Positions 14,546-61,154 of a DNA stretch of 64,000 nucleotides are shown in pieces; positions within the stretch are counted from its first letter, which is position 1; the number at the start of each line of letters is the position of its first letter. Below the pieces are notes generated by a model that searched no databases, was not told where the DNA came from, and was given only the letters and a program-made list of their open reading frames with translations. Source of the stretch: Branchiostoma lanceolatum (lineage: Eukaryota; Chordata; Leptocardii; Amphioxiformes; Branchiostomatidae); the NCBI RefSeq assembly GCF_035083965.1, contig NC_089726.1, positions 5,001-69,000 on the forward strand, read 5' to 3'. Position numbers and translations under genes: made by a program.

Positions 14546-14559
14546 CAAGAGTTACAGTT

Positions 14560-16721: not shown

Positions 16722-16764
16722 TGTCTGTGTGTGTGTTCGTGTGTGTGTGTGTGTGTGTGTGTGT

Positions 16765-16799
<35 letters not shown>

Positions 16800-16850
16800 T
16801 CTGTGTGTGTGTTTGTGCGTCTGTCTGTTTGTGTGTCTGTGTAGCCTGAA
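16722..16850. repeat. (GT)n microsatellite
   Basis: An imperfect TG/GT dinucleotide run of about 120 bp, interrupted by TTCG and TCTC, just outside the right end of the TIR element. Confidence 0.95.
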
Positions 16851-17770: not shown

Positions 17771-20700
17771 CTAAGATCCGGGGATGGTTCCTGCTGAAGG
17801 GGCTTCATGACGACTCGTGAACCTGTCCATGATTCTCCTCAGCTGTGGTTGGACGTTGCCTAGCAATGGGCGTGCGGTCGGCTCCCTTGCCCAGCAGGCT
17901 GCCATCAGCGCCCAACACTCGTCATCAAACTGGGGCAGCCTTTCCGGACGGGCACCTACATATAAACAATAACAAACAAACAATACAGGTAAATAACATT
18001 GATACAGGTAGATAACATTGATACAGGTAAATAACATTGATACAGGTAAATAACATTGATACAGGTAAATAACATTGATACGGGTAAATAACATTGATAC
18101 AGGTAAATAACATTGATACAGGTAGATAACATTGATACAGGTAAATAACATTGATACAGGTAAATAACATTGATACGGGTAAATAACATCGACTTCAGAC
18201 TCGTCAACAAACTCAGGGAGCTGTTCTGCAGTCAACAATACAGGAGTATAAAAAATTATCATAAACACCGACCCTGATGCAACATGTACAGGTGAACAAA
18301 CAGTGACCTATCCCCTTAGCACTTGGGTACCGACAAGACAGATATCCTGACACGAGAATCAACCCTCACTCCAGCACTTTCCTTTTCCTACATCATAACA
18401 TTGAATCAACCCTCACTCCAGCACTTTCTTTCCCTGTCCTACATCATAACATTGAACCTGGACCGGTTGCTCAAGTGTTTCTGACGGAGTTCCAGAGATG
18501 GCCCTTACCTTTTCTGATGGAGTTCCAGAGATGGCCCTTACCTTTTCTGATGGAGTTCCAGAGATGGTCCTTACCTTTTCTGATGGAGTTCCAGAGATGG
18601 TCCTTACCTTTTCTGACAGAGTTCCAGAGATGGTCCTTACCTTTTCTGATGGAGTTCCAGAGATGGTCCTTACCTTTTCTGACGGAGTTCCAGAGATGGT
18701 CCTTACCTTTTCTGATGGAGTTCCAGAGATGGTCCTTACCTTTTCTGACGGAGTTCCAGAGGTGGTCCTTACCTTTTCTGATGGAGTTCCAGAGATGGTC
18801 CTTACCTTTTCTGACGGAGATCCATAGATGGCCCTTACCTTTTCTGATGGAGTTCCAGAGATGGCCCTTACCTTTTCTGATGGAGTTCCAGAGATGGTCC
18901 TTACCTTTTCTGATGGAGTTCCAAAAATGGCCCTTACCTTTTCTGACGGAGTTCCAGAGATGGCCCTTACCTTTTCGGACGGAGTTCCAGAGATGGTCCT
19001 TACCTTTTCTGACGGAGTTCAAGAGATGGTCCTTACCTTTTCTGACGGAGTTCCAGAGATGGTCCTTACCTTTTCTGACGGAGTTCCAGAGATGGTCCTT
19101 ACCTTTTCTGACGGAGTTCCAGAGATGGTCCTTACCTTTTCTGACGGAGTTCCAGAGATGGCCCTTACCTTTTCGGACGGAGTTCCAGAGATGGTCCTTA
19201 CCTTTTCTGACGGAGTTCCAGAGATGGTCCTTACCTTTTCTGACGGAGTTCCAGAGATGGTCCTTACCTTTTCGGACAGAGTTCCAGAGATGGTCCTTGC
19301 TGGCGCACTGCTCGAACACGTGCGGCAGTCGGACCGTTCCCGCGCAGACGTACCAGAACAGGATGCCGAACGCGTACACGTCCACGCTGCTGTCGTACTT
19401 CCCCGTGAACAGCTCCGGCGCCATGTGGATCGGAGTTCCCACGATGCTCCCGCTCATCATGGCTTCCGGCTTGCAGAACCCCAGGTCCGTAATCTTCCCG
19501 CGATTCTTCTTATCCAGCTGCAAAATAACAGAACAGTCTCACCCCAACAGTCTCATCCAACAGTCTCATCCAACAGTCTCATCCAACAGTCTCATCCCAA
19601 CAGTCTCATCCCAACAGCCTCATCCCAACAGTCGCATCCAAACAGTCTCATCCAACAGTCTCATCCCAACAGTCTCATCCAACAGTCTCATCCAACAGTC
19701 TCATCCAACAGTCTCATCCCAACAGCCTTATCCAACAGTCTCATCCCAACAGTCTCATCCAACAGTCTCATCCAACAGCCTCATCCAACAGTCTCATCCC
19801 AACAGTCTCATCCCAACAGCCTCATCCCAACAGTCGCATCCAAACAGTCTCATCCAACAGTCTCATCCCAACAGTCTCATCCAACAGTCTCATCCCAACA
19901 GCCTCATCCAACAGTCTCATCCAACAGTCTCACCCAACAGTCTCATCCCAACAGCCTCATCCCAACAGTCGCATCCAAACAGTCTCATCCAACAGTCTCA
20001 TCCCAACAGTCTCATCCCAACAGTCTCATCCAACAGTCTCATCCAACAGTCTCATCCAACAGTCTCATCCCAACAGCCTCATCCAACAGTCTCATCCCAA
20101 CAGTCTCATCCCAACAGTCTCATCCAACAGTCTCATCCCAACAGCCTCATCCAACAGCCTCATCCCAACAGTCTCATCCCAACAGCCTCATCACAACAGT
20201 CTCATCCAACAGTCTCATCCAACAGCCTCATCCAACAGTCTCATCCAACAGCCTCATCCAACAGTCTCATCCAACAGTCTCATCCAACAGTCTCATCCAA
20301 CAGTCTCATCCAACAGTCTCATCCCAACAGTCTCATCCAACAGTCTCATCCAACAGTCTCATCCAACAGTCTCATCCAACAGTCTCATCCAACAGTCTCA
20401 TCCAACAGTCTCATCCAACAGTCTCATCCCAACAGCCTCATCCAACAGTCTCATCCAACAGTCTCATCCAACAGTCTCATCCAACAGTCTCATCCAACAG
20501 TCTCATCCAACAGTCTCATCCAACAGTCTCATCCCAACAGCCTTATCCAACAGTCTCATCCAACAGCCTCATCCCAACAGTCTCATCCAACAGTCTCATC
20601 CAACAGTCTCATCCCAACAGTCTCATCCCAACAGTCTCATCCAACAGTCTCATCCAACAGTCTCATCCCAACAGTCTCATCCAACAGTCTCATCCAACAG

Positions 20701-23700
20701 TCTCATCCAACAGTCTCATCCAACAGTCTCATCCAACAGTCTCATCCAACAGTCTCATCCCAACAGCCTCATCCAACAGTCTCATCCAACAGTCTCATCC
20801 AACAGTCTCATCCAACAGTCTCATCCAACAGTCTCATCCAACAGTCTCATCCAACAGTCTCATCCCAACAGCCTTATCCAACAGTCTCATCCAACAGCCT
20901 CATCCCAACAATCTCATCCAACAGTCTCATCCAACAGTCTCATCCCAACAGTCTCATCCAACAGTCTCATCCAACAGTCTCATCCCAACAGTCTCATCCC
21001 AACAGTCTCATCCCAACAGTCTCATCCAACAGTCTCATCCAACAGTCTCATCCCAACAGTCTCACCCCAACAGTCTCATCCCAACAGCCTCATCCAACAG
21101 TCTCATCCCAACAGTCTCATCCAACAGTCTCATCCCAACAGTCTCATCCCAACAGTCGCATCCAACAGTCGCATCCCAACAGTCTCATCCCAACAGTCGC
21201 ATCCAACAGTCTCACCCCAACAGTCTCATCCAACAGTCTCATCCCAACAGTCTCATCCAACAGTCTCATCCCAACAGCCTCATCCAACAGTCTCATCCAA
21301 CAGTCTCATCCCAACAGTCTCATCCAACAGTCTCTTCCCAACAGTCTCATCCCAACAGTCTCATCCAACAGTCTCATCCAACAGTCTCATCCCAACAGTC
21401 TCATCCAACAGTCTCATCCCAACAGCCTCATCCAACAGTCTCATCCAACAGTCTCATCCCAACAGTCTCATCCAACAGTCTCATCCCAACAGTCTCATCC
21501 AACAGTCGTATCCAACAGTCGCATCCAACAGTCTCTTCCCCATGTAAGAACCCCCCCCCCATGTGTCACAACCCCTGGATGTACCAGACCCCCCCTGTAC
21601 CAGACCCCCCGTCCCAGACCCCCCTGTACCATCTACTCCCTGTCCCAGACCCCCCTCTATCAGACCCCCCTGTCCCAGACCCCCCTGTACCAACCAGCAC
21701 GTTCTTCAGCTTGATGTCCCTGTGCACCAGCCCCTGGCTGTACCAGACCCCCTGTCCCAGACCCCCCCCTGTCCCAGACCCCCCCCCCCCCTGTCCCAGA
21801 CCCCCTGTCCCAGACCCCCTGTCCCAGACCCCCCCTGTCCCAGACCCCCTGTACCCACCAGCACGTTCTTCAGCTTGATGTCCCTGTGCACCAGCCCCTG
21901 GCTGTACCAGACCCCCTGTACCAGACCCCCCTGTACCAGACCCCCCCTGTCCACAACCCCCCATGTACCAGACCCCTCCGTCCCAGACCCCCTGTACCCA
22001 CCAGCACGTTCTTCAGCTTGATGTCCCTGTGCACCAGCCCCTGGCTGTACCAGACCCCCTGTCCCAGACCCCCCCTGTACCAGACCCCCCCTGTCCCAGA
22101 CCCCCCTGTACCCACCAGCACGTTCTTCAGCTTGATGTCCCTGTGCACCAGCCCCTGGCTGTGCAGGTAGCGCATCCCCTCCACCACGTCCAGCGCCACC
22201 TGCAGCCGGCTCACCGCGTCAAGCCCGGCCTTGATGGCGGCGTAGAGGTCGCGCTGAAGCCTGTCCATCACCAGCAGCACGGCCGGGCTGCAGCCCCCGC
22301 CATAGCTGTGGTCGATCACCGAGCCTCGCAGCATCACGATCCTCTCGTGCTCAGGGATGGACCTGCAACACGTCAACAAAATGTCATCAGCAAAACCCTA
22401 ACCCTTACCCTAACGCTCACAGCATCACGATCCTCTCGCTAACACTAACGCTAACGCTTACACTAACAGTAACACTAACCCTTACGCTAACGCTAACACT
22501 AGCACTCCCAGCATCACGATCCTCTCGTGCTGAGGGATAGACCTGACACATGTCAACAGGACATGCCGTCAGCCTATGGGAACATGCCGTCAGCCTATGG
22601 GAACATGCCGTCAGCCTATGGGAACATGCCGTCAGCCTATGGGACAGCATTTAGGGGTCAATTACAGAGCAAAGCATGGCAAAGGTAACAAATTTTTACT
22701 AGAGTTTGGAAATGCACATTTTTTGTTCTCCTTGGAAAGCTGGACCTTTAGGCAGGTTTTTTTTTCTGGGGAAAATTTGCAAGGGGGGCAGATTGGTTGG
22801 TGTGAAGGGGTGTTTTGCCCTTGCACATTTGGAGTTTTAGACACATTTCAGTTAGGTGGGGCATTCTAAAGCTTCCTGAGGGGGAAAATAACCTTGTGCA
22901 CCATGAATGGGAACTCCAATATGAGACCTCGTGTGGTGAAACTCCAATATGAGACGTACCTTGTGTAGTGGAATTCCAGTGCCAGGTCGTTCCAGTGCTT
23001 CTCGTCTGGAGGCACAACAGATTTCACCGCGAGGGACGAGCGGCCAGACCAGCTGTCACACGCATACACCACCCCATACTGGCCGCGTCCGATCTCCCGC
23101 CCGAGCTGTGGCATTCCTGATAAACAAACAAACAAACAAGCTGTCACAGGCATACACAACCCTGTACTGGCCTCTCCCGATCTCCCTACTGAGCTGTGGC
23201 ATTCCTGATAAACAAACAAACAAACAAGCTGTCACAGGCATACACAACCCTGTACTAGCCGCGTCCGATCTCCTTACCGAGCTGTGGCATTCCTGATAAA
23301 CAAACAAACAAACAAGCTGTCACAGGCATACACCACCCCATACTGGCCGCGTCCGATCTCCCGCCCGAGCTGTGGCATTCCTGATCAACAAACAAACAAA
23401 CAAACAAGCTGTCACAGGCATACACAACCCTGTACTGGCCGCGTCCGATCTCCCTACTGAGCTGTGGCATTCCTGATAAACAAACAAACAAACAAGCTGT
23501 CACAGGCATACACCACCCCATACTGGCCGCGTCCGATCTCCCGCCAGAGCTGTGGCATTCCTGATCAACAAACAAACAAACAAACAAGCTGTCACAGGCA
23601 TACACAACCCCATACTGGCCGCGTCCGATCTCCCGCCCGAGCTGTGGCATTCCTGATAAACAAACAAACAAACAAGCTGTCACAGGCATACACCACCCCA

Positions 23701-26700
23701 TACTGGCCGCGTCCGATCTCCCTACCGAGCTGTGGCATTCCTGATAAACAAACAAACAAACAAACAAGCTGTCACAGGCATACACCACCCCATACTGGCC
23801 GCGTCCGATCTCCCGCCCGAGCTGTGGCATTCCTGATAAACAAACAAACAAACAAACAAGCTGTCACAGGCATACACCACCCCATACTGGCCTCTCCTGA
23901 TCTCCCTACCGAGCTGTGGCATTCCTGATAAACAAACAAACAAACAAACTGTCACAGGCATACACAACCCCATACTGGCCGCGTCCGATCTCCCTACCGA
24001 GCTGCGGCATTCCTGATAAACAAACAAACAAACAAGCAAGCTGTCACAGGCATACACCACCCCATACTGGCCGCGTCCGATCTCCCTACCGAGCTGTGGC
24101 ATTCCTGATAAACAAACAAACAAACAAGCAAGCTGTCACAGGCATACACAACCCTGAACTGGCCTCTCCCGATCTCCCTACAGAGCTGTGGCATTCCTGA
24201 TAAACAAACAAACAAACAAACTGTCACAGGCATACACCACCCCATACTGGCCGCGTCCGATCTCCCTACCGAGCTGTGGCATTCCTGATAAACAAACAAA
24301 CAAACAAACAAGCTGTCACAGGCATACACAACCCTGTACTGGCCTCTCCCGATCTCCCTACCGAGCTGTGGCATTCCTGATAAACAAACAAACAAACAAG
24401 CTGTCACAGGCATACACAACCCCATACTGGCCGCGTCCGATCTCCCTACCGAGCTGTGGCATTCCTGATAAACAAACAAACAAACAAACAAGCTGTCACA
24501 GGCATACACAACCCCATACTGGCCTCTCCCGATCTCCCTACCGAGCTGTGGCATTCCTGATAAACAAACAAACAAACAAGCTGTCACAGGCATACACAAC
24601 CCTGTACTGGCCTCTCCCGATCTCCCTACTGAGCTGTGGCATTCCTGATAAACAAACAAACAAACAAGCTGTCACAGGCATACACAACCCTGTACTGGCC
24701 GCGTCCGATCTCCCTACCGAGCTGTGGCATTCCTGATAAACAAACAAACAAACAAGCAAGCTGTCACAGGCATACACAACCCCATACTGGCCGCGTCCGA
24801 TCTCCCTACCGAGCTGTGGCATTCCTGATAAACAAACAAACAAACAAGCTGTCACAGGCATACACCACCCCATACTGGCCGCGTCCGATCTCCCTACCGA
24901 GCTGCGGCATTCCTGATAAACAAACAAACAAACAAGCTGTCACAGGCATACACAACCCCATACTGGCCGCGTCCGATCTCCCTACCGAGCTGTGGCATTC
25001 CTGATAAACAAACAAACAAACAAGCTGTCACAGGCATACACCACCCCATACTGGCCGCGTCCGATCTCCCTACCGAGCTGCGGCATTCCTGATAAACAAA
25101 CAAACAAACAAGCTGTCACAGGCATACACAACCCCATACTGGCCGCGTCCGATCTCCCTACCGAGCTGTGGCATTCCTGATAAACAAACAAACAAACAAG
25201 CTGTCACAGGCATACACCACCCCATACTGGCCGCGTCCGATCTCCCTACCGAGCTGTGGCATTCCTGATAAACAAACAAACAAACAAGCAAGCTGTCACA
25301 GGCATACACAACCCCATACTGGCCGCGTCCGATCTCCCGCCTGAGCTGTGGCATTCCTGATCAACAAATAAACTGTCACACGCATACACATGTAAACCAC
25401 CCCGTACTGCCGACAGCCGATCTCCCTGCTGATAAACAAACGAGGTGGGCCAGTGAGCATGTAATAAGTAAGTAAGTGTAAAGCCCTACCATAAGTGTAA
25501 AGCCCTACTGCAAGTGTAAAGCCCTACCATCATAAAGTGTAAAGCCCTACTGTAAGTGTAAAGCCCTACTGTAAGTGTAAAGCCCTACCGTGAGTGAAAA
25601 GCCCTACCGTGAATGCAAAGCCCTACCGTAAGTGTAAATGTAATGCCCTACCGTAAGTGTTTTATTTTTTTATTGATTGGTTTGGCATGTTGCCAGGGTT
25701 CCCAACTAGCCAGAGGCTATTACTAAGGGTGAACCCAGGTGTGATAATCTCCAAGTGTGAGAGTGTGATAATCTCCAAGTGTGAGAGAGTGATAATCTCC
25801 TAGTGTGAGAGAGTGATAATCTCCTAGTGTGAGAGTGTGATAATCTCCTAGTGTGAGAGTGTGATAATCTCCTAGTGTGAGAGAGTGATAATCTCCTAGT
25901 GTGAGAGTGAGATAATCTCCTAGTGTGAGAGAATGATAATCTCCTAGTGTGAGAGTGTGATAATCTCCTAGTGTGAGAGTGAGATAATCTCCTAGTGTGA
26001 GAGAATGATAATCTCCTAGTGTGAGAGTGTGATAATCTCCTAGTGTGAGAGAATGATAATCTCCTAGTGTGAGAGTGAGATAATCTCCTAGTGTGAGAGA
26101 ATGATAATCTCCTAGTGTGAGAGTGTGATAATCTCCTAGTGTGAGAGTGTGATAATCTCCTAGTGTGAGAGAGTGATAATCTCCTAGTGTGAGAGTGAGA
26201 TAATCTCCTAGTGTGAGAGAATGATAATCTCCTAGTGTGAGAGAGTGATAATCTCCAAGTGTGAGAGAGTGATAATCTCCTAGTGTGAGAGAGTGATAAT
26301 CTCCTAGTGTGAGAGTGTGATAATCTCCTAGTGTGAGAGTGTGATAATCTCCTAGTGTGAGAGTGTGATAATCTCCTAGTGTGAGAGAGTGATAATCTCC
26401 TAGTGTGAGAGTGTGATAATCTCCTAGTGTGAGAGTGTGATAATCTCCTAGTGTGAGAGAATGATAATCTCCTAGTGTGAGAGAATGATAATCTCCTAGT
26501 GTGAGAGTGTGATAATCTCCTAGTGTGAGAGTGTGATAATCTGCTAGTGTGAGAGTGTGATAATCTCCTAGTGTGAGAGTGTGATAATCTCCTAGTGTGA
26601 GAGAGTGATAATCTCCTAGTGTGAGAGTGTGATAATCTCCTAGTGTGAGAGTGTGATAATCTCCTAGTGTGAGAGAATGATAATCTCCTAGTGTGAGAGT

Positions 26701-35316: not shown

Positions 35317-35747
35317 CTTGGCTCACAGTCTGGAGTAAAGCTAGCAGCACCTTCGACCATACCCTATTCGCTGTGTCGTCTGCAGTAACGTCAACACCCG
35401 ATTCGGCACTTGTGTACTCGCCGAATCGTTTTAAGTAACAAAAGCAGCTAGTTCGGTCATAGTCTATTCGCGGCTGCAGATCCGTTGACCTCCACTGGAC
35501 GATATTTACAAACATTTCAGTAGTGTACCCTCTCAACATCGATGGTATTACTCACTTTGTGGTCCTGTGTAAATCCCCAAATACAATATATTGACCTCTG
35601 ATATCATGGAACATCGGTGTGAGACAGCACATGCATGTTACGAATCGTCCGCCACCGACTTGCCTGCTAGTTCCTGGTCCAGAAAAAGCTGTACACGCGA
35701 GATGCGCTACTAAGACGGACGTGTGTGTGTGCAGCTAGATAGCGGCC
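35317..35747. promoter_or_regulatory. Shared divergent promoter of DSTYK and POP1
   Basis: Only 431 bp separate the two start codons, so both promoters and 5' untranslated regions must lie here unless upstream non-coding exons exist. The DSTYK start lies in AAGATGGCGG, which matches the YY1-type element often seen at start sites of TATA-less promoters. No TATA box was evident. The segment has no minisatellite, unlike the transcribed parts of both genes. Confidence 0.65.
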
Positions 35748-47700: not shown

Positions 47701-50700
47701 ATGTTCAGGACTGGTGAGTACTGCTGGTTACTTACATGTTCAGGGCTCTGACTGGTGAGTACTGCTGGTTACTTACATGTACAGGGCTCTGACTGGTGAG
47801 TACTGCTGGTTACTTACATGTTCAGGACTGGTGAGTACTGCTGGTTACTTACATGTTCAGGGCTCTGACTGGTGAGTACTGCTGGTTACTTACATGTTCA
47901 GGACTGGTGAGTACTGCTGGTTACTTACATGTTCAGGACTGGTGAGTACTGCTGGTTACTTACATGTTCAGGGCTCTGACTGGTGAGTACTGCTGGTTAC
48001 TTACATGTACAGGGCTCTGACTGGTGAGTACTGCTGGTTACTTACGTGTTCAGGACTGGTGAGTACTGCTGGTTACTTACATGTTCAGGGCTCTGACCGG
48101 TGAGTACTGCTGGTTACTTACATGTTCAGGGCTCTGACTGGTGAGTACTGCTGGTTACTTACATGTACAGGGCTCTGACTGGTGAGTACTGCTGGTTACT
48201 TACATGTTCAGGACTGGTGAGTACTGCTGGTTACTTACATGTTCAGGGCTCTGACTGGTGAGTACTGCTGGTTACTTACGTGTTCAGGGCTCTGACTGGT
48301 GAGTACTGCTGGTTACTTACATGTTCAGGTCTGGTGAGTACTGCTGGTTACTTACATGTTCAGGACTGGTGAGTACTGCTGGTTACTTACGTGTTCAGGA
48401 CTGGTGAGTACTGCTGGTTACTTACGTGTTCAGGGCTCTGACTGGTGAGTACTGCTGGTTACTTACATGTTCAGGTCTGGTGAGTACTGCTGGTTACTTA
48501 CATGTTCAGGACTGGTGAGTACTGCTGGTTACTTACATGTTCAGGACTGGTGAGTACTGCCGGTTACTTACATGTTCAGGGCTCTGACTGGTGAGTACTG
48601 CTGGTTACTTACATGTTCAGGACTGGTGAGTACTGCTGGTTACTTACATGTTCAGGACTGGTGAGTACTGCTGGTTACTTACATGTTCAGGACTGGTGAG
48701 TACTGCTGGTTACTTACGTGTTCAGGACTGGTGAGTACTGCTGGTTACTTACATGTTCAGGACTGGTGAGTACTGCCGGTTACTTACATGTTCAGGGCTC
48801 TGACCGGTGAGTACTGCTGGTTACTTACATGTACAGGGCTCTGACTGGTGAGTACTGCTGGTTACTTACATGTTCAGGACTGGTGAGTACTGCTGGTTAC
48901 TTACATGTTCAGGGCTCTGACTGGTGAGTACTGCTGGTTACTTACATGTTCAGGACTGGTGAGTACTGCTGGTTACTTACGTGTTCAGGGCTCTGACTGG
49001 TGAGTACTGCCGGTTACTTACATGTTCAGGGCTCTGACCGGTGAGTACTGCTGGTTACTTACATGTACAGGGCTCTGACTGGTGAGTACTGCTGGTTACT
49101 TACATGTTCAGGACTGGTGAGTACAGCTGGTTACTTACATGTTCAGGGCTCTGACTGGTGAGTACTGCTGGTTACTTACATGTTCAGGACTGGTGAGTAC
49201 TGCTGGTTACTTACATGTACAGGGCTCTGACTGGTGAGTACTGCTGGTTACTTACATGTTCAGGGCTCTGACTGGTGAGTACTGCTGGTTACTTACGTGT
49301 TCAGGGCTCTGACTGGTGAGTACTGCTGGTTACTTACATGTTCAGGACTGGTGAGTACTGCCGGTTACTTACATGTTCAGGGCTCTGACTGGTGAGTACT
49401 GCTGGTTACTTACATGTTCAGGGCTCTGACTGGTGAGTACTGCTGGTTACTTACATGTTCAGGGCTCTGACTGGTGAGTACTGCTGGTTACTTACATGTT
49501 CAGGGCTCTGACTGGTGAGTACTGCCGGTTACTTACTTACAATTTAGAATAAGCTTGTTACGTACCTGTTGAGATATGTACATAGAATTAGACATGGTCA
49601 CTCTCATCAAAATTCCATGTCTGTTTTCAGAAAACAGTCAGGATCATTCTACTGCATCTTCCCGCCAGCTGTGGCTGTGGACCCACCCAGCCATCACCCA
49701 GGACGTTCTACAGGAGCTACAGCAGGTGGGTAAGGGGGGTCGGCAGGGGGGGAGCCCGGGAGGGCATGGGGTAAGCCAGGACCCACCCAGTCTGCACCCA
49801 GGACGTTCTACAGGAGCTCCAGCAGGTGGGTAAGGGGGGTCGGCAGGGGGGGAGCCCGGGAGGGCATGGGGTAAGCCAGGACCCACCCAGTCTGCACCCA
49901 GGACGTTCTACGGGAGCTCCAGCAGGTGGGTAAGGGGGGTCGGCAGGGGGGGAGCCCGGGAGGGCATGGGGTAAGCCAGGACCCACCCAGCCATCACCCA
50001 GGACGTTCTACGGGAGCTCCAGCAGGTGGGTAAGGGGGGTCGGCAGGGGGGGAGGGCATGGGGTAAGCCAGGACCCACCCAGTCTGCACCCAGGACATTC
50101 TACAGGAGCTACAGCAGGTGGGAAAGGGGGGTCGGCAGGGGGGAGGGCAGCGTTCCCGCCAGGCATACCTCAGTGCGTCAGGGGGGGAGGGCATGGAGTA
50201 GGGCAGGGGTAAAGAGGGTAGGGCAGGGGTAAAGGGGGGTCGGTAGGGGTAGAGCAGCACCCACCCAGGCTGCACATAGGACATTCTACAGGAGCTCCAG
50301 CAGGTGTGTATGGGGGGTCGGCAGGGGATAGGGCTTGGGGGCGAGGGCAGGACCCACCCAGATGCTCCCAGTGTTTGTGCTCCATACAGGTGTCTCACAC
50401 AAGTGTTTTTGTTCTAAAGAGGTGTCTCACACAAGTGTTTGTGTTCTATACAGGTGTCTCACAACAGTGTTTGTGTTCTATGCAGATGTCTCACACCGGT
50501 GTTTGTGTCCAGTCCATTGGCCATGAGCTGGTGAGGTTTCGGCTGACTGGACAGCTTGCTGCAGCTACCCTGGAGGCTGCCCTGAATCTCCCCCCCTTAC
50601 AGAATGGTGAACTCTCACGGTTCTCCGTTATTAGAAGTGTCATCTTATTTCCTGCTACCCCATGTGCTAAATCTGTCGATGTGTGTTGTCATGGCAACCT

Positions 50701-53700
50701 GAAAACAGACATGTTTGAAATGGAACAGTAAAATCATGCATGTAACTTCAATTTTCTATGTATTGTATATTTTGCAAGTTTTGTTTATTTTGTATTTTGG
50801 GTTTTATGTGATGTAAGTTTTGTGTGTTAATTTAGAGACAGTGCAACCAGGACAAGTGCTCTCCCTGACTGTGGTGGATCCTCGACTCAACATGCCCAGC
50901 AAGAGAACTAAAGTCACTCCACTCACAGCAGCAGGTAAGGTCACTCCGGAGAACTAAAGTCACTCCACTCACAGCAGCAGGTAAGGTCACTCCGGAGAAC
51001 TAAAGTCACGCCACTCACAACAGCAGGTAAGGTCACTCCGGAGAACTTAAGTCCCCCCACTCACAGCAGCAGGTAAGGTCACTCCGGAGAACTAAAGTCA
51101 CTCCACTCACAACAGCAGGTAAGGTCACTCCGGAGAACTAAAGTCACTGCACTAACAGCAGCAGGTAAGGTCACTCCGGAGAACTAAAGTCACTCCACTC
51201 ACAACAGCAGGTAAGGTCACTCCGGAGAACTAAAGTCACTCCACTCACAACAGCAGGTAAGGTCACTCCGGAGAACTAAAGTCACTGCACTAACAGCAGC
51301 AGGTAAGGTCACTCCGGAGAACTAAAGTCACTCCACTCACAACAGCAGGTAAGGTCACTCCGGAGAACTAAAGTCACTCCACTCACAACAGCAGGTAAGG
51401 TCACTCCGGAGAACTAAAGTCACTCCACTCACAACAGCAGGTAAGGTCACTCCGGAGAACTAGAGTCACTCCACTCACAACAGCAGGTAAGGTCACTCCG
51501 GAGAACTAAAGTCACTCCACTCACAACAGCAGGTAAGGTCACTCCGGAGAACTAAAGTAGTAGAGTTACATGTGTATGTGAGTAATGTTCTGTATGATAC
51601 TCTGTGTGTCCCCAGCTGACCCAGTAGAGTTACATGTGTATGTGAGTAATGTTCTGTATGATACTCTGTGTGTCCCCAGCTGACCCAGTAGAGTTACATG
51701 TGTATGTGAGTAATGTTCTGTATGATACTCTGTGTGTCCCCAGCTGACCCAGTAGAGTTACATGTGTATGTGAGTAATGTTCTGTATGATACTCTGTGTC
51801 CCCAGCTGACCCAGTAGAGTTACATGTGTATGTAAGTAATGTTCTGTATGATACTCTGTGTGTCCCCAGCTGACCCAGTAGAGTTACATGTGTATGTGAG
51901 TAATGTTCTGTATGATACTCTGTGTGTCCCCAGCTGACCCAGTAGAGTTACATGTGTATGTGAGTAATGTTCTGTATGATACTCTGTGTCCCCAGCTGAC
52001 CCAGTAGAGTAACATGTGTATGTGAGTAATGTTCTGTATGATACTCTGTGTCCCCAGCTGACCCAGTAGAGTTACATGTGTATGTGAGTAATGGTCTGTA
52101 TGATACTCTGTGTCCCCAGCTGACCCAGTAGAGTTACATGTGTATGTGAGTAATGTTCTGTATGATACTCTGTGTCCCCAGCTGACCCAGCAGAGTTACA
52201 TGTGTATGTGAGTAATGTTCTGTATGATACTCTGTGTGTCCCCAGCTGACCCAGTAGAGTTACATGTGTATGTGAGTAATGTTCTGTATGATACTCTGTG
52301 TGTCCCCAGCTGACCCAGTAGAGTTACATGTGTGTGTGAGTAATGTTCTGTATGATACTCTGTGTGTCCCCAGCTGACCCAGTAGAGTTACATGTGTGTG
52401 TGAGTAATGTTCTGTATGATACTCTGTGTGTCCCCAGCTGACCCAGTAGAGTTACATGTGTGTGTGAGTAATGTTCTGTATGATACTCTGTGTCCCCAGC
52501 TGACCCAGTAGAGTTACATGTGTGTGTGAGTAATGTTCTGTATGATACTCTGTGTGTCCCCAGCTGACCCAGTAGAGTTACATGTGTATGTGAGTAATGT
52601 TCTGTATGATACTCTGTGTCCCCAGCTGACCCAGTAGAGTAACATGTGTATGTGAGTAATGTTCTGTATGATACTCTGTGTGTCCCCAGCTGACCACGTA
52701 GAGTTACATGTGTATGTGAGTAATGGTCTGTATGATACTCTGTGTGTCCCCAGCTGACCCAGTAGAGTTACATGTGTATGTGAGTAATGTTCTGTATGAT
52801 ACTCTGTGTCCCCAGCTGACCCAGTAGAGTTACATGACTGTGTATGTGAGTAATGTTCTGTATGATACTCTGTGTCCCCAGCTGACCCAGTAGAGTTACA
52901 TGACTGTGTATGTGAGTAATGTTCTGTATGATACTCTGTGTCCCCAGCTGACCCAGTAGAGTTACATGTGTATGTGAGTAATGTTCTGTATGATACTCTG
53001 TGTCCCCAGCTGACCCAGCAGAGTTACATGTGTATGTGAGTAATGTTCTGTATGATACTCTGTGTGTCCCCAGCTGACCCAGTAGAGTTACATGTGTATG
53101 TGAGTAATGTTCTGTATGATACTCTGTGTCCCCAGCTGACCCAGCAGAGTTACATGTGTATGTGAGTAATGTTCTGTATGATACTCTGTGTGTCCCCAGC
53201 TGACCCAGTAGAGTTACATGTGTATGTAAGTAATGTTCTGTATGATACTCTGTGTGTCCCCAGCTGACCCAGTAGAGTTACATGTGTATGTGAGTAATGT
53301 TCTGTATGATACTCTGTGTCCCCAGCTGACCCAGTAGAGTTACATGTGTATGTGAGTAATGTTCTGTATGATACTCTGTGTGTCCCCAGCTGACCCAGTA
53401 GAGTTACATGTGTATGTGAGTAATGTTCTTTATGATACTCTGTGTGTCCCCAGCTGACCCAGTAGAGTTACATGTGTATGTGAGTAATGTTCTGTATGAT
53501 ACTCTGTGTCCCCAGCTGACCCAGTAGAGTTACATGTGTATGTGAGTAATGTTCTGTATGATACTCTGTGTGTCCCCAGCTGACCCAGTAGAGTTACATG
53601 TGTATGTGAGTAATGTTCTGTATGATACTCTGTGTGTCCCCAGCTGACCCAGTAGAGTTACATGTGTATGTGAGTAATGTTCTGTATGATACTCTGTGTG

Positions 53701-56700
53701 TCCCCAGCTGACCCAGTAGAGTTACATGTGTATGTGAGTAATGTTCTGTATGATACTCTGTGTGTCCCCAGCTGACCCAGTAGAGTTACATGTGTATGTG
53801 AGTAATGTTCTGTAATACTCTGTGTCCCCAGCTGACCCAGTAGAGTTGGAGTGTGATGCGGTACTCTGGGATGCAGACAAGAGAAAAATGCTCCAAACTC
53901 CACCAGGGCAGAACAACAGGTAACGTAACATGACCAATTATCGTCCAATTCATTCGAAACGTATTTATCTTAAAACTGTGCTGACAGAGCCAAATGTTAA
54001 ACCCATGGGCAGAAATATTCAGCACTTCTAACAAGAAAATGCATGGTCTGCAAGTTTTTCTCTGCCTGTTTAACGCCATGCGAGCATGTATTAATACTGG
54101 GGTATATGATGTAGAATTGTGCTAGGCTTACCCATTATCGTCCGCTTCAGTCTTTTCCCTTCTAGCGCTATGCTTGAAGAACATAGACCGGAAAAAATGC
54201 ACAGTAACTGTCCAAAGTAATCTACAGACAAATGATAGTAAAGTCACTGTTTGTCCCGCCGCATGCTTGATGTGATGGAAGAGAACAATGTTGTGTAGTG
54301 AATTTCACCGACATCAGCGGCACGTGGTGTTCACGTGATAAACGCATGGCCATGATGTTATGCCATGCCAAAATGTACCATCAGAGCGGGGGTCGTTAGG
54401 TTTTATCGAACCTTCCTAAAACTGGTAAGAGTTTCAAACCTCGAATCACCATGGATAGTCTGAATATCAAAGAAAGGTTTAACGTCAGCTACTTTTAAAA
54501 GATACTAGCTATCATGTAAGTTTGAAAAACATGATGAAGTACGCGGTGTCAAATTACATATGAAATACGTCATGCATGACGCTTCCGTGCAACTTGTTGT
54601 TACTGGTTCAGGAGTTTATTCTGTTATGTCGCTGGACGTAAACCTTTTTCATTGTTTTCTATAAAAGAAAGAGATGGCTAAGGATCTTATGACATCCTTT
54701 TTTGCTCATTAGAACAGGCTTTGGCATAATACACCTCGACATGTGGACATGACCCACACTGCACGATAACAGGTCCTGCACGATAATTGGTCCTGCACGA
54801 TAACAGGTCCTGCACGATAATTGGTCCTGCACGATAACTGGTCCTGCACGATAACTGGTCCTGCACGATAACTGGTCCTGCACGATAACTGGTCCTGCAC
54901 GATAACAGGTCCTGCACGATAACTGGTCTTGCACGATAATTGGTCCTGCACGATAACTGGTCCTGCACGATAACTGGTCCTGCACGATAATTGGTCCTGC
55001 ACGATAACTGGTCCTGCACGATAACTGGTCCTGCACGATAACAGGTCCTGCACGATAATTGGTCCTGCACGATAACTGGTCCTGCACGATAACTGGTCCT
55101 GCACGATAATTGGTCCTGCACGATAACAGGTCCTGCACGATAATTGGTCCTGCACGATAACTGGTCCTGCACGATAACTGGTCCTGCACGATAACTGGTC
55201 CTGCACAATAACTGGTCCTGCACAATAACTGGTCTTGCACGATAACTGGTCTTGCACGATAACAGGTCCTGCACGATAATTGGTCTTGCACGATAATTAG
55301 TCCCGCACGTTAACTGGTCCTGCACGATAATTGGTCATGCTACTTTAACAACATCAGCTTCTCTTCAGGTTGGGATTAACTGTTGCACTTGATAGAAACA
55401 AACGACAGGTCCTTCTCTTGGCTTATTTATTTTCCAATGTATTGTTGATAAAGGGGGGCTGAGGTACGTACGGGGGGCTGAGGTACGTACAGGGGGGCTG
55501 AGGTATGTACAGGGGGCTGAGGTATGTACAGGGGGCTGAGGTATGTACAGGGGGCTGAGGTATGTACAGGGGGGCTGAGGTACGTACAGGGGGGCTGAGG
55601 TATGTACAGGGGGCTGAGGTATGTACAGGGGTCAAGTATTGGGGAGTCTATGTTAAGCAGTTCTAACATGTTTAACTGTCAATTCCTCACAATAACTGGT
55701 CCTGCACAATAACTGGTCTTGCACGATAACTGGTCTTGCACGATAACAGGTCCTGCACGATAATTGGTCTTGCACGATAATTAGTCCCGCACGTTAACTG
55801 GTCCTGCACGATAATTGGTCATGCTACTTTAACAACATCAGCTTCTCTTCAGGTTGGGATTAACTGTTGCACTTGATAGAAACAAACGACAGGTCCTTCT
55901 CTTGGCTTATTTATTTTCCAATGTATTGTTGATAAAATTGTAACATTGTGCACCTTTTGCATCGTTTAACTATTGTTTACAGCAATGTTGTGCATCACTG
56001 TTGTTATGTGGCACTTTGGGTGCCTTTGTTGTGTTGATGTTTGTCCCTGTTTCCTGCCCATCTCCAGGAGTGGTGAGGAAGATACAGATGTTGCGGGAGA
56101 TGATGGATCTGTTGCCGGGGACAACAGACGTGTTCCCATCTTACTGGTGCATCAGCAGGGGCGCACGGCTCAGTGGGGGGTCACACCTGCCTCCGCCCTA
56201 GGGATGGGCTGGGACGTCATCCTGCCCGCAGGCTGGGCCATGGTCTTCTGGCTGGGTCTCCAGTACAGGGGGGCCCGCGCAGGGGGGCTGAGGTACGTAC
56301 AGGGGGCCTGCACAGGGGGGCTGAGGTACGTACAGGGGGGCCCGTGCAGGGGGGCTGAGGTACATACAGGGGGGGCCGCTCAGGGGGGCTGAGGTACATA
56401 CAGGGGGGGCCGCTCAGGCGGGCTGAGGTACGTACAGGGGGGCTGAGGTATGTACGGGGGGGGGGGGGGGGGGGGGGGCTGAGGTAGTTACGGGGGGGGG
56501 GGGGCTAATGTACATACGGGGGCTGAGGTACGTACAGGGGGCTGAGGTACGTACAGGGTGGCTGAGGTACGTACGGGGGGGCCGAGGTATGTAGGGGGGG
56601 GGGGCTGAGGTATGTAGGGGGGGGCTAAGGTACGTACGGGGGGCTGAGGTACGTACGGGGGGCTGAGGTATGTACAGGGGGGCTGAGGTACGTACAGGGG

Positions 56701-58409
56701 GGCTGAGGTATGTACAGGGGGGCTGAGGTACGTACAGGGGGGCTGAGGTATGTACAGGGGGGCTGAGGTACGTACGGGGGGCTGAGGTACGTACGGGGGG
56801 CTGAGGTATGTACAGGGGGCTGAGGTATGTACAGGGGGCTGAGGTACGTACAGGGGGCTGAGGTATGTACAGGGGGGCTGAGGTACGTACAGGGGGCTGA
56901 GGTATGTACAGGGGGCTGAGGTACGTACAGGGGGCTGAGGTATGTACAGGGGGGCTGAGGTATGTACAGGGGGCTGAGGTATGTACAGGGGTCAAGTATT
57001 GGGGAGTCTATGTTAAGCAGTTCTAACATGTTTAACTGTCAATTCCTCACTCAATCTGTTAAAAATGACGGTTGTTACTCCAGCTGGTGAAAGTGAAAGT
57101 TGGTGAAAGTGAAAGTTGTTCCTCCTTTCCCAGAGAAATGCGGCGGCTGCAGCTGGAAACCGGCCAGCTGGTTTTCCCTGACGACTTCCCGGATACGGAA
57201 GCGTACCGAACACTGCACCAGGAACAGGCAGCGCGGCGGAGAGAGCAGCATGACAGGTTAGTACCCCCCCCACTATCCCCCCCACTATCCCCCCCACTAT
57301 CCCCCCCCTCTATCCTCCCCCCCTCACTGAACACTGCACCAGGAACAGGCAGCGCGGCGGAGAGAGCAGCATGACAGGTTAGTACCCCCCCCACTATCCC
57401 CCCCCCTCTATCCTCCCCCCCCCCCCTCCTCACCGAACACTGCACCAGGAACAGGCAGCGCGGCGGAGAGAGCAGCATGACAGGTTAGTACCCCCCCCAC
57501 TATCCCCCCCTCTATCCTCCCCTCCCCCCCTCTCTGCTAAACCTGTCCTGTCCACATGTCCTGCTCCAATTTCTAATGACGTCAGATGCAATGCTGGTGA
57601 AGATCAATATGGATTCCACTACGACATGTAGGTAACTATAAAAGCCTGTGGTTAACACAATGCTGTTGTCCTGATGTCGCTCCATTTTTCACTACATGTA
57701 GGTAACTATAAAAGCCTGTGGTTAACACAATGCTGTTGTCCGGATGTCGCTCCATTGCAGGTACCCACCAGGGAAAAGGCCCAACTTCGCCAAACTGGGG
57801 ACTGCTGCACCCTTTCACTGCCCCTGGGACCGGCTGGTGGAAGGGTGGGCACAGCTTGCAGGCACTCCATCCACAGGACAGCCTCGCGGAACACAGCTCG
57901 CAGGCACTCCATCCCCAGGACAGCCCCGGGGTCTCTGCGTTGCCAGGGACAGGAGGATACGGCAGCAGCTGTCTCAGCTGTGTCGTCATGCCGACCAGCA
58001 GCTAGGTCGTCATGCCGACCGTCCAGAGCTGGTCCCTGTTCTCTCCCACCTGGTGGCCGTCCGCCTAAGAATGGTCTCGCGGGGGACGCCTGTTGCCATG
58101 GCGATGATCTGTGCCCCCTCGGAGGAAGATGTTGCTGGGGGCGTGGCGAGCAGCCCTGTGGAGCCTGCGCACCCGGAGGGGATGATAAGCGACGACTGCG
58201 ACGTTGTCAGACATTGTTCCCGGCTAACGCTGGGGTACGTTACAGCAGGGGCGAACAGCCTGGCCGCAGGTCAGGGGTCGGGGGTGGGGCTGTGTGTGGT
58301 GCAGGGTCTGCTGTCTGCTCTGCAGGTGCAGCAGCAGGGGCAGGCTGTGGTGCTGGTGCGCAACCCCAACTCTGCACAGTACCGCTTTGCACATGTCACT
58401 GTTCTGTAA
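35748..58409 (+). CDS. POP1: Ribonuclease P/MRP protein subunit POP1, 14 coding exons
   Basis: Exons: 35748-35801, 37611-37749, 37897-38081, 38592-38761, 41860-41944, 42616-42703, 46198-46314, 49631-49725, 50486-50606, 50836-50934, 53832-53919, 56068-56292, 57134-57256, 57761-58409. Every junction is GT-AG with matching phase, giving 745 codons plus stop. This is shorter than human POP1 (about 1,024), mainly because the internal and C-terminal linkers are short. Conserved segments in order: LPRHMRRRAVSHN (99-111), HVWHAKRFHMVN (171-182), WGYRLPDHP, DISYYGCIEL, GPVTYVFR, SRQLWLWTHP, LVRFRLTGQL, LSLTVVDPRLNMP, GWDVILPAGW (461-470), YRGARAGGL, KRPNFAKLGTAAPFHCPW, and the C-terminal NSAQYRFAHVTVL. 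POP1 is the large scaffold protein of nuclear RNase P and RNase MRP, acting in tRNA 5'-end and rRNA processing. Repeated splice sites lie at most exon edges; I used the copy that preserves the conserved protein. Confidence 0.93.
35802..36628. repeat. ~40-bp array repeating the POP1 exon 1 end and donor (~20 copies)
   Basis: Units read TCAGGACAG then GTCAGTGTTGTTGTTAGCTG followed by a run of C of variable length. The first exon ends GGACAG|GTCAGT, so each unit repeats 6 exon bases plus the donor. The C tract changes from CCTCC-type toward pure C runs along the array. Confidence 0.95.
36629..37610. other. POP1 intron 1 unique region
   Basis: Unique sequence with no convincing coding potential. 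The composition shifts near 36880 and 37400 suggest old transposon pieces, but I recognised no termini. Confidence 0.35.
37795..37825. repeat. Degenerate copy of the POP1 exon 3 acceptor
   Basis: TTTGCACAGGTTTGACTGTGAT resembles the true exon 3 start TTTGCACAG|GACTGACTGTGAT about 92 bp downstream. It looks like a single decayed duplicate of an acceptor. Confidence 0.6.
38082..38420. repeat. Decayed copies of the POP1 exon 3 end and donor (2-3 copies)
   Basis: Sequences resembling the exon 3 end (CGGCTGCC...CAGGCTAC, GTCATCAGAAAG) with the donor GTGTGTAGTC recur near 38160-38210 and 38285-38325. A partial third copy near 38365 lacks the donor. They are separated by CCTAACCTTTAACC-type telomere-like DNA. 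Identity is much lower than in the other arrays, so this is an old array. Confidence 0.8.
38762..41765. repeat. 56-bp array repeating the POP1 exon 4 end and donor (~53 copies)
   Basis: Each unit repeats about 45 bases of exon 4 (encoding THVWHAKRFHMVN) plus the donor GTGCGTTACCTG. The period is 56 bp (exon copies start at 38727, 38783 and so on), so the frame shifts each copy and all three plus-strand frames stay open for about 3 kb. Copies are nearly identical; variants are mainly GTAC/GCAC/ATGC after the donor. Near 40849, 40936 and 41704 the pattern is broken by TGTCCCCAGGTG...TGCAGTACTCAGGTGCATTACC inserts. Confidence 0.97.
41945..41985. repeat. One extra copy of the POP1 exon 5 end and donor
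   Basis: CTGTCTTATACAG|GTGTGTTTA is followed 24 bp later by CTGTCTTATACAGGTGTGTATA, a minimal two-copy version of the same pattern. Confidence 0.85.
42239..42268. other. Short perfect hairpin in POP1 intron 5
   Basis: AGCTCCTAT and ATAGGAGCT form a 9-bp perfect stem around a loop of about 9 bases, just upstream of the Penelope-like fragment. Confidence 0.6.
42284..42440 (+). pseudogene. Penelope-like reverse transcriptase fragment in POP1 intron 5
   Basis: From 42284 the frame reads FLDTKTIIEKDGRL, then VYRRPTHTDQYLAFDSHHP, then LEHKLAVIK. This matches the segment that follows the YVDD motif in the subtelomeric Penelope-like copy (FLDTLTTIQDDGSL ... KPTHTDQYLNFRSNHP). The fragment is about 50 codons long and truncated on both sides. 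It lies in the sense orientation within the intron. Confidence 0.85.
42704..46085. repeat. 33-bp array repeating the POP1 exon 6 end and donor (~102 copies)
   Basis: Each unit is GTAACTCCTTAGTTATC followed by ACTCCCCAAGACACAG, the last 16 exon bases. The unit is 11 codons and keeps the exon's frame: read-through adds GNSLVITPQDT per copy until a TAA near 43058. Variant copies (GACAAAGG, GACGAAGG, CATGACAC, TTCTTAG) appear in blocks that recur about 1 kb apart, indicating large internal duplications as well as single-unit changes. Confidence 0.97.
46315..49545. repeat. 34/41-bp array repeating the POP1 exon 7 end and donor (~65 copies)
   Basis: Units read GTGAGTACTGCTGG then TTACTTACATGTTCAGG then either ACTG or GCTCTGACTG, so two length classes (34 and 41 bp) are interleaved. 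The exon end is TTACTTACGTGTTCAGGACTG followed by GTGAGT, so about 21 exon bases and a consensus donor are repeated. A transposon interrupts the array at 46746-47568. Confidence 0.97.
46746..47568. mobile_element. hAT-like non-autonomous transposon with 8-bp target duplication
   Basis: The 823-bp insertion begins TAGTGGTGCGGATCG and ends with its exact inverse (CGATCCGCACCACTA), with imperfect similarity further in (TCCGGACC-rich). It is flanked by GTTACTTA on both sides (46738-46745 and 47569-47576), an 8-bp duplication of array sequence. An 8-bp duplication with short termini of this form is characteristic of hAT elements. No transposase is encoded. The interior contains a full TGACGTCA and an inverted CCAAT box. 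Confidence 0.92.
49726..50310. repeat. ~100-bp array repeating the POP1 exon 8 end and donor (5-6 copies)
   Basis: Copies of CACCCAGGACGTTCTACAGG...CAGCAG with the donor GTGGGTAAGG recur about every 100 bp, separated by G-rich sequence. Extra copies read CTCCAGCAG where the exon has CTACAGCAG. The last copies are more diverged. Confidence 0.94.
50380..50485. repeat. Copies of the POP1 exon 9 acceptor (3 extra copies)
   Basis: TGTTCTATACAGGTGTCTCACAC-type segments precede the true TGTTCTATGCAG|ATGTCTCACACC. The extra copies have GTG directly after CAG where the exon has ATG. Confidence 0.92.
50935..51560. repeat. 46-bp array repeating the POP1 exon 10 end and donor (~13 copies)
   Basis: Units read GTAAGGTCACTCCGGAG then AACTAAAGTCACTCCACTC then ACAACAGCAG. 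The last 29 bases repeat the exon end and each copy carries the strong donor GTAAGG. Confidence 0.97.
51561..53831. repeat. ~64-bp array repeating the POP1 exon 11 acceptor and exon start (~35 copies)
   Basis: Each unit has CTCTGTGTGTCCCCAG, then CTGACCCAGTAGAGTT (the first 16 bases of exon 11), then ACATGTGTATGTGAGTAATG. Units therefore contain both a good acceptor and, about 26 bases on, a consensus donor GTGAGT. Length classes differ by a GT dinucleotide (TGTGTCCCC or TGTGTGTCCCC). Confidence 0.97.
53920..54760. other. POP1 intron 11 unique region
   Basis: Non-repetitive intron DNA without recognisable genes or transposon ends. Confidence 0.4.
54762..55335. repeat. 17-bp CTGCACGATAACTGGTC array (~33 copies)
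   Basis: Copies of TCCTGCACGATAACTGG, with AACAGG and AATTGG variants, fill 570 bp of POP1 intron 11. No exon bases are included. The end of this array is duplicated downstream at 55691-55830. Confidence 0.96.
55207..55936. repeat. Rearranged duplication of exon 12-flanking DNA
   Basis: 55207-55452 and 55691-55936 are matching 246-bp segments (end of the 17-bp array plus a unique stretch to TTGTTGATAAA). Between them, 55453-55690 copies the exon 12 donor array and the adjoining unique DNA that ends CAATTCCTCAC at 57050. The order is A-B-C-D followed by A-B-exon 12-C-D: a tandem duplication whose upstream copy lacks exon 12. The junction shares CAC microhomology. Confidence 0.88.
56293..56992. 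repeat. ~20-bp array repeating the POP1 exon 12 end and donor (~35 copies)
   Basis: Units of GGGGGGCTGAG then GTACGTACA or GTATGTACA repeat the last 11 exon bases and the donor. G runs vary from 5 to more than 20. Early units (56293-56420) also include GGCCCGTGCAGG, matching further exon sequence (encoding GARAGGLR). Confidence 0.95.
57257..57500. repeat. Copies of the POP1 exon 13 end and donor (2 extra copies)
   Basis: About 47 bases of exon 13 (from ACACTGCACCAGGAACAGG to CATGACAG) plus the donor GTTAGTACC are repeated twice, separated by CCCCCCACTATCC tracts. Confidence 0.95.
57625..57760. repeat. Duplicated intron segment before the POP1 exon 14 acceptor
   Basis: Two copies of GTAGGTAACTATAAAAGCC ... 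GATGTCGCTCCATT. The upstream copy ends TTTTTCACTA and lacks the CAG; the downstream copy ends TTGCAG at the true acceptor. Confidence 0.9.
57846..57935. repeat. Coding tandem duplication in POP1 exon 14
   Basis: Two in-frame copies of a 14-residue unit (QLAGTPSTGQPRGT / QLAGTPSPGQPRGL) in the linker after the CPW motif. Confidence 0.9.
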
Positions 58410-58797
58410 CACAACTCTGCACAGTACCGCTTTGCATATGTAACGGTTCTGTAACACAACTCTGCACAGTACCGCTTCGCACATGTCACTGTTCTGTAAC
58501 ACAACTCTGCACAGTACCGCTTTGCATATGTAACGGTTCTGTAACACAACTCTGCACAGTACCGCTTTGCACATGTCACTGTTCTGTAATATACTGTTCT
58601 ATAATACACACATAACGGTTCTGTAATACACACATAACGGTTCTCTGATACACACAAAACTGTTCTGTAATACACACATAACTGTTCTGTAATACACACA
58701 TAACGGTTCTGTAATACACACAACTGTTCTGTAACACACACAAAACTGTTCTGTAATACATACATAGCTGTTCTGTAATACACACATAGCTGTTCTG
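58368..58797. repeat. Repeats of the POP1 3' coding end including the stop codon
   Basis: A 45-bp unit starting AACTCTGCACAGTACCGC and ending CTGTTCTGTAACAC (the last 14 codons and TAA of POP1) occurs five times from the authentic end to about 58590. Alternate copies read CATATGTAACGG. The array then shortens into ACACATAACGGTTCTGTAAT-type repeats of about 20 bp. These lie in the 3' untranslated region. Confidence 0.95.
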
Positions 58798-61150: not shown

Positions 61151-61154
61151 TTTG

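What the first reader, a model, noticed from the sequence alone, without database searches (positions are those of the whole stretch)
17955..58590. Nearly every intron of two genes carries a minisatellite that copies the exon edge and its splice site
At most exon borders of DSTYK and POP1 a tandem array starts exactly at the splice site. For most of them the unit includes 6 to about 60 exon bases plus an intact GT donor or AG acceptor. Unit sizes are unrelated between introns (20, 33, 34/41, 46, 49, 56, 64, 90, 100 bp), so each array arose independently from its own border, not by spread of one repeat. That points to a process that recognises or damages exon-intron borders. I recall that 'mirage' minisatellites of this kind were reported for amphioxus Adh (unchecked); the density here may be new.
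Basis: partly seen in the sequence, partly recalled or inferred. Interest (0 to 1): 0.92.

Follow-up and report, generated by a model that had tools for sequence, protein, structure and literature searches.

The report
Amphioxus exon edges copied through introns
In two neighbouring genes near a chromosome end of a lancelet, most introns carry tandem copies of the adjoining exon edge and its splice site; this is a dense case of the already described lancelet "mirage" repeats, and most or all of the pattern can be explained by frequent tandem duplication in short introns with harmful copies weeded out.

Summary
I rebuilt complete open reading frames for POP1 (14 exons, 746 aa) and DSTYK (11 exons, 915 aa), all introns GT-AG, 97-99% identical to Branchiostoma lanceolatum proteins. 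At 25 of 46 exon borders (16 of 23 donors, 9 of 23 acceptors), in 19 of 23 introns, the intron holds a better copy of its own border than the other 22 introns do. The kind is known: amphioxus "mirage" minisatellites; a 2026 paper describes similar anatomy in chicken as "sequence stuttering". A process that recognises exon borders is not established. The splice site sits at a random place in the unit; other arrays lie inside exons in whole codons and across the POP1 stop codon. Excess over random placement depends on assumptions: 20 of 37 arrays against 7.7 expected, or 16 against 17.4 under strict scoring with 100-bp introns. Best reading: pervasive tandem duplication in short introns, filtered by protein function. 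Possibly new: at 3 of 4 coding differences from another B. lanceolatum gene model that lie in copied exon edges, the other allele is present among the array copies, hinting at exchange.

The parts
35748..58409 (+). POP1, 14 coding exons, complete ORF of 746 aa
   Evidence: 97% identical to B. lanceolatum POP1 (P0001); Pfam POP1_N, POPLD, POP1_C (on a 675-aa partial model)
17771..35316 (-). DSTYK, 11 coding exons, complete ORF of 915 aa
   Evidence: 98.6% identical to B. lanceolatum DSTYK (P0122) over 782 aa; Pfam Pkinase (on a 503-aa partial model)
18478..19298 (-). 33-bp donor array, DSTYK intron 10, 31 exon bases per unit, 24 junctions; coding frame open through the array (ORF 18471-19538)
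21572..22162 (-). ~114-bp donor array, DSTYK intron 9, 47 exon bases, 4 junctions; also seen in another B. lanceolatum gene model with different copy phase
23051..25373 (-). 88-bp acceptor array, DSTYK intron 7, 66 exon bases (kinase P-loop), 26 junctions
28089..28756 (-). ~32-bp acceptor array, DSTYK intron 5, 7 exon bases, 15 junctions
29008..29866 (-). 49-bp donor array, DSTYK intron 4, 16 exon bases, 18 junctions
29966..30174 (-). 52-bp acceptor array, DSTYK intron 3, 13 exon bases, 8 junctions
30197..31896 (-). 92-bp donor array, DSTYK intron 3, 53 exon bases plus (CAAA)n, 19 junctions
35824..36623 (+). 42-bp donor array, POP1 intron 1, 7 exon bases, 20 junctions
38026..38354 (+). 119-bp donor array, POP1 intron 3, 56 exon bases, 3 junctions
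38715..41704 (+). 56-bp donor array, POP1 intron 4, 47 exon bases, 52 junctions
41931..41977 (+). 22-bp two-copy donor repeat, POP1 intron 5, 14 exon bases
42555..42636 (+). 39-bp two-copy acceptor repeat, POP1 intron 5, 21 exon bases
42688..46081 (+). 33-bp donor array, POP1 intron 6, 16 exon bases, 103 junctions; coding frame open except for stops ending at 43059 and 43323
46310..49536 (+). 41/35-bp donor array, POP1 intron 7, about 27 exon bases, 62 junctions in two parts split by an 823-bp insertion; long and short unit forms match the exon edges of two B. lanceolatum alleles
49679..50143 (+). 100-bp donor array, POP1 intron 8, 47 exon bases, 5 junctions
50370..50508 (+). 32-bp acceptor array, POP1 intron 8, 23 exon bases, 4 junctions
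50903..51558 (+). 46-bp donor array, POP1 intron 10, 32 exon bases, 14 junctions
51559..53847 (+). 64-bp acceptor array, POP1 intron 10, 16 exon bases, 36 junctions; abuts the donor array, so the intron is all array
56263..56991 (+). 34- and 20-bp donor array, POP1 intron 12, 13 or more exon bases, 31 junctions
57277..57532 (+). 106-bp donor array, POP1 intron 13, about 52 exon bases, 3 junctions
58367..58589 (+). 45-bp array across the POP1 stop codon: each unit repeats the last codons plus TAA; not a splice site
33508..33646 (-). 39-bp in-frame coding array inside DSTYK exon 2
57975..58020 (+). 24-bp in-frame coding repeat inside POP1 exon 14 (a 42-bp in-frame two-copy repeat lies just upstream)

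Best explanation
These are amphioxus 'mirage' minisatellites. Tandem duplication is very frequent in this part of the genome and starts at arbitrary places. Most introns were probably short: with each array collapsed to one unit, 17 of 23 have 110 to 356 bases left. A 20-120 bp seed then often straddles an exon border by chance. A straddling duplication is tolerated because the outermost splice site still bounds the same exon; seeds inside exons survive only in whole codons or across the stop. Arrays then grow and shrink by ordinary repeat turnover. Shown here: anatomy, local origin, random phase of the splice site, whole-codon periods in exons. Inferred: the seeding mechanism, splicing from the outermost site, purifying selection.
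For: Own-intron copies at 25 of 46 borders with a near-chance exon-internal control of 9 of 81. Exon share of the unit evenly spread (KS p 0.55, 20 arrays). The four TRF arrays that lie in exon sequence or across the stop have periods 39, 12, 24 and 45/90; a 14-residue coding repeat in POP1 exon 14 has 2 copies in B. lanceolatum, 1 in B. belcheri and 8 in B. floridae. Collapsed intron lengths. The random-placement null gives 17.4 of 37 against 16 observed under strict scoring with 100-bp introns. No consistent age gradient from the exon outward in 11 arrays. Published amphioxus cases involve both border types, with AG/GT in many units and RT-PCR suggesting regular splicing (PMC3087553, passages).
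Against: With present-day collapsed introns and inclusive scoring, border arrays exceed the null: 20 of 37 against 7.7 (P 1e-7; 9.1 expected, P 9e-6, if 4 overlapping bases suffice), arrays of 300 bp or more 15 of 18 against 5.6; strict scoring with uncapped introns still gives 16 against 9.1 (P 0.0035) and 12 of 18 large arrays against 6.4 (P 0.002). Large arrays are border-anchored more often than small ones (15 of 18 against 5 of 19, Fisher P 0.0008). Border units are longer than intronic units (median 47.5 against 19), which placement explains only in part. Outermost-site splicing was not measured.
Confidence: 0.62

Rival explanations
1. A border-directed process: something tied to transcription, splicing or the exon-intron composition step breaks or re-copies DNA at exon edges, or exon-anchored arrays expand more readily.
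For: Excess of border arrays under inclusive scoring, most of it in arrays of 300 bp or more (15 of 18 against 5.6; smaller arrays 5 of 19 against 2.1, P 0.03); a lean to donors (16 of 23 against 9 of 23, Fisher p 0.07; 12 of 15 large border arrays, p 0.035). [quoted passage not shown]
Against: Random phase of the splice site in the unit; arrays across the stop codon and inside exons; excess vanishes under strict scoring with 100-bp introns (16 against 17.4); no consistent gradient of copy divergence from the exon. The chicken figure would follow from any straddling seed.
Confidence: 0.22
2. The arrays are kept for a use, such as decoy splice sites or in-frame protein variation by alternative donor choice.
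For: 449 of 450 recognised junctions keep GT or AG (recognition itself allowed at most 2 mismatches, and up to 20 of the 450 are the authentic sites); the coding frame stays open through the 33-bp array of DSTYK intron 10 (ORF 18471-19538).
Against: GT/AG columns are not significantly more conserved than others (rotation p 0.10, 9 arrays); 15 of 20 border units are not multiples of three; the 33-bp array of POP1 intron 6 has two in-frame stops; the B. lanceolatum POP1 gene model joins all exons with a single two-residue gap against mine, though gene models are predictions and two DSTYK models (P0122, P0190) do read into an intron.
Confidence: 0.06
3. Assembly artefact: arrays created or inflated by misassembly.
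For: Array length in long-read assemblies can be wrong; the window is one sequence only.
Against: Copies carry their own variants; another B. lanceolatum gene model (P0122) reads through three copies, the authentic one included, of the DSTYK exon-9 edge in another phase than the window; amphioxus mirages in other genes were supported by trace reads or re-sequencing (PMC3087553, PMC3902484, passages).
Confidence: 0.03

Closest known systems
Amphioxus 'mirage' minisatellites (Adh3, globins BflGb6 and BflGb9, troponin C, PGBD5)
   Same: [quoted passage not shown] the Adh paper of 2002 was not held).
   Different: Here 19 of 23 introns of two adjacent genes carry border copies and one array has about 103 junctions; the passages that I read describe one or a few repeats per gene.
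Avian 'sequence stuttering' / exon stuttering on chicken dot chromosomes (PMC12954441; section 7 part 1 and section 9 read, passages elsewhere)
   Same: Introns filled with local repeats, lateral exon parts with the splice site copied through the neighbouring intron, blocks of tens to hundreds of bases, intraspecies length variation.
   Different: 190 of 236 chicken introns lie on dot chromosomes and the authors link it to GC-rich genes; units here have GC 0.33 to 0.60 (11 arrays). The held text has no 'mirage', 'minisatellite', 'lancelet' or 'cephalochordate'.
Ordinary coding and intronic minisatellites
   Same: Tandem turnover; in-frame coding units with species-variable copy number also occur here.
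   Different: Do not include splice sites.

Membership tests
amphioxus mirage minisatellite | Tandem units span an exon-intron border | tested here: met
   25 of 46 borders
amphioxus mirage minisatellite | Both 5' and 3' borders affected | tested here: met
   16 of 23 donors, 9 of 23 acceptors
amphioxus mirage minisatellite | Splice signals present in many units | tested here: met
   449 of 450 recognised junctions, authentic ones included
amphioxus mirage minisatellite | Host is a cephalochordate | tested here: met
   97-99% protein identity to B. lanceolatum
amphioxus mirage minisatellite | Length instability between haplotypes | tested here: inconclusive
   One array differs in copy phase from another gene model; no second DNA sequence
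amphioxus mirage minisatellite | Normal mRNA splicing despite the copies | not testable with these tools
   Complete ORFs use the outermost sites, but no RNA data
avian-type sequence stuttering | Repetitive introns with exon-edge copies | tested here: met
avian-type sequence stuttering | GC-rich setting (an association in the paper rather than a definition) | tested here: not met
   Window GC 0.32 to 0.60 per 2 kb; units GC 0.33 to 0.60
avian-type sequence stuttering | Extensive intraspecies intron length variation | not tested
   No population data

The most novel reading that the evidence does not exclude
Border arrays are in two-way sequence exchange with the living exon edge, so the intron stores alternative versions of the coding edge and feeds coding polymorphism; and amphioxus mirages and bird stuttering are one chordate process that acts wherever tandem duplication is fast and introns are short. 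Evidence: of 4 coding differences between the window and the other B. lanceolatum POP1 model that lie inside copied exon edges, 3 have the other allele among this haplotype's array copies: D122E (1 of 1 copies), A384T (9 of 13) and the RT/RALT two-residue indel (both unit forms present, 20 exact short and 18 exact long in the larger part); E520D does not (0 of 2). Retained ancestral states or recurrent small deletions could give the same picture.
Probability: 0.3. Interest if true: 0.75.

Novelty: new member of a known kind. Interest (0 to 1): 0.5.

Why it matters
The two genes are a natural test of splice-site choice: up to about 100 near-identical donors follow one exon, yet my reading frames are intact with the outermost one. 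They also link a phenomenon reported in lancelets since the early 2000s with one described as novel in birds in 2026, and supply a quantitative null (seed length against intron length, with a coding filter) that any claim of a border-specific process must beat. If exon edges and arrays exchange sequence, introns would be a direct source of coding variation.

Tried and rejected
Own-genome search: none held. Original Adh mirage paper: not held; I used passages of later papers. Rfam and tRNA scans of the window: nothing at the thresholds used (ARAGORN ran with the bacterial code). Two further amphioxus papers were looked at by passages and gave nothing on border repeats (PMC2632668, PMC2206037). 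Suspected frameshift in POP1 exon 12: rejected, the frame agrees with P0001. Growth of arrays outward from the exon: Spearman coefficients differ in sign between arrays (0.45 for DSTYK intron 10, -0.53 for DSTYK intron 4, -0.69 for POP1 intron 12). Selection on copied GT/AG: rotation p 0.10; an earlier cell-wise test (p 0.003) ignored relatedness of copies and included two misaligned units of the POP1 intron-1 array, which I dropped. Exon-derived columns look more variable than intron-derived ones (31 of 293 against 7 of 209 columns; rotation p 0.02), unexplained. Placement test: the 37 arrays come from 39 TRF clusters touching introns after merging two split pairs. Sixteen overlap an exon by TRF extent; four more (starting at 21572, 28089, 35824, 57277) were counted as border arrays through the border test because TRF clipped their ends. 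Inclusive runs required 7 (also 4) overlapping bases, strict runs 4. In one search the exon share of the POP1 intron-7 unit was entered as 11 and corrected to 27. In one search five of ten listed DSTYK differences (776-780) are the read-through tail of P0122, and ten codons of DSTYK intron 10 had no counterpart; both sets were left out.
Full report
What it is. The window begins with 3.3 kb of TAACCC telomere repeat. Two genes lie head to head: DSTYK on the minus strand (17771-35316) and POP1 on the plus strand (35748-58409). I joined exons at GT-AG borders and obtained complete reading frames of 915 and 746 codons. POP1 is 97% identical to B. lanceolatum POP1 (P0001) over its whole length, and DSTYK 98.6% identical to B. 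lanceolatum DSTYK (P0122) over 782 residues; B. belcheri POP1 is 75% identical over the full length and B. floridae POP1 71% over the first 592 residues. The window is therefore very probably B. lanceolatum.

Is the pattern there? TRF arrays cover 76-77% of intron bases, 15-16% of exon bases, 79% of the 3' side (58620-64000), 25% of 3332-17600 and none of the 431 bases between the two coding regions. For each of 46 borders I aligned exon edge and intron edge, anchored at GT or AG, with every such dinucleotide of its own intron and of the 22 other introns. The own intron won at 27 of 46 borders, 2.0 being expected; 25 of these had an exon-side score of at least 7 (16 donors, 9 acceptors), in 19 of 23 introns. 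The misses are POP1 introns 9 and 11 and DSTYK introns 1 and 2. The same test at exon-internal positions gave 9 of 81, about 7 being expected; the three high scores (45.5, 67.5, 25.5) come from DSTYK exons 3 and 8, whose border units reach 53 and 66 bases into the exon. Origin is local: the one strong foreign match of a border is POP1 intron 12 in intron 11 (score 28.5), where a patch of the intron-12 array sits between two copies of a segment identical over 249 bases.

Anatomy. Border units run from 20 to 119 bp with 7 to 66 exon bases. The exon share of the unit is spread evenly between 0.17 and 0.94 (KS p 0.55, 20 arrays), so the splice site is not where units begin. In 21 array pieces I found 450 non-overlapping junctions with at most 2 mismatches over 11 to 13 bases, up to 20 of them the authentic sites; 449 keep the dinucleotide. 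POP1 intron 10 is made of a donor array that abuts an acceptor array.

Not only splice sites. A 45-bp array repeats the last codons and the stop of POP1. The three TRF arrays inside exons have periods that are multiples of three: 39 bp in DSTYK exon 2, 12 bp in POP1 exon 2, 24 bp in POP1 exon 14. POP1 exon 14 also has a 14-residue repeat with 2 copies in B. lanceolatum, 1 in B. belcheri and 8 in B. floridae. This is what a general duplication process with a coding filter predicts.

Is the border favoured? With each array collapsed to one unit, I asked how often a seed of that length, placed at random so that it touches the intron, would straddle a border. Inclusive scoring: 20 of 37 arrays against 7.7 expected (P 1e-7), most of the excess in arrays of 300 bp or more (15 of 18 against 5.6; smaller arrays 5 of 19 against 2.1, P 0.03); with introns capped at 100 bp, 14.6 expected (P 0.02), large arrays 9.1 (P 0.0005). 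Strict scoring by TRF extent alone: 16 of 37 against 9.1 (P 0.0035) and 12 of 18 large arrays against 6.4 (P 0.002), but with 100-bp introns 17.4 (P 0.77) and 10.3 (P 0.25). The window was also picked because of this pattern. So a border preference is possible but not shown.

Exchange with the exon? At the end of POP1 exon 7 the window reads VFRT and P0001 has VFRALT. The array holds both forms: beyond the insertion 20 units have the exact short form and 18 the exact long form (plus 13 close variants, 11 long and 2 short); the ten units on the exon side of the insertion are all long. D122E and A384T show the same: the other allele is found in the array (1 of 1 and 9 of 13 copies); E520D does not (0 of 2). 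Fourteen further POP1 substitutions lie outside copied codons. Among 207 copied codons that agree between the alleles, 26 have a different residue in two or more copies.

Evidence from another sequence. The B. lanceolatum DSTYK gene model P0122 ends in a read-through of the intron-9 array and shows three copies of the exon edge, the authentic one included, in three frames; the window has them in another order. That argues against an artefact of this assembly and for length variation.

Known or new. Tandem repeats across exon-intron borders in amphioxus were named 'mirages' at Adh3 and reported for globins, troponin C and PGBD5, with data suggesting regular splicing (PMC3087553 and PMC3902484, passages). 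A 2026 paper describes similar anatomy in chicken as a novel phenomenon, 'sequence stuttering', with exon copies in 236 introns of 115 genes (PMC12954441, section 7 part 1 and section 9 read, passages elsewhere); its held text lacks the words mirage, minisatellite and lancelet. Search listings for minisatellite with amphioxus, lancelet or intron gain, for tandem repeats with amphioxus introns (20 of 45 listed) and for 'sequence stuttering' showed no genome-wide survey of mirages in the held library; most subscription papers are missing from it. I file the finding as a dense new member of a known kind.

Noticed in passing
window 46746-47568: An 823-bp insertion inside the POP1 intron-7 array has inverted ends (TAGTGGTGCGGATCG) and appears flanked by an 8-base target duplication (GTTACTTA), like a hAT-type non-autonomous element (type recalled, not searched).
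   Followed up: partly
window 6250-7437, + strand: Open frames that look like a Penelope-like reverse transcriptase and a GIY-YIG-like end lie beside interstitial TAACCC repeats near the telomere; Pfam gave no match, so the identification is recalled from motifs. A similar-looking stretch lies in POP1 intron 5 near 42300.
   Followed up: partly
window 8877-9278, - strand: Weak match to an endonuclease-reverse transcriptase domain (PF14529, E 7e-5, below its cut-off), probably a LINE remnant.
   Followed up: partly
window 55204-55452 and 55688-55936: Two copies identical over 249 bases in POP1 intron 11 flank a patch of the intron-12 array: a recent duplicative rearrangement.
   Followed up: partly
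window 30197-31896 and 23051-25373: Two DSTYK border units carry a (CAAA)n or (TTTG)n stretch next to the splice site; several DSTYK introns have TTTG repeats just before the acceptor.
   Followed up: no
window 59395-60585 and 61158-64000: Large arrays of 50-bp and 22-bp units 3' of POP1; no gene was sought there.
   Followed up: no
window 3161-3520: The telomere array degenerates into CCCCTGAC and related variant repeats before unique sequence.
   Followed up: no
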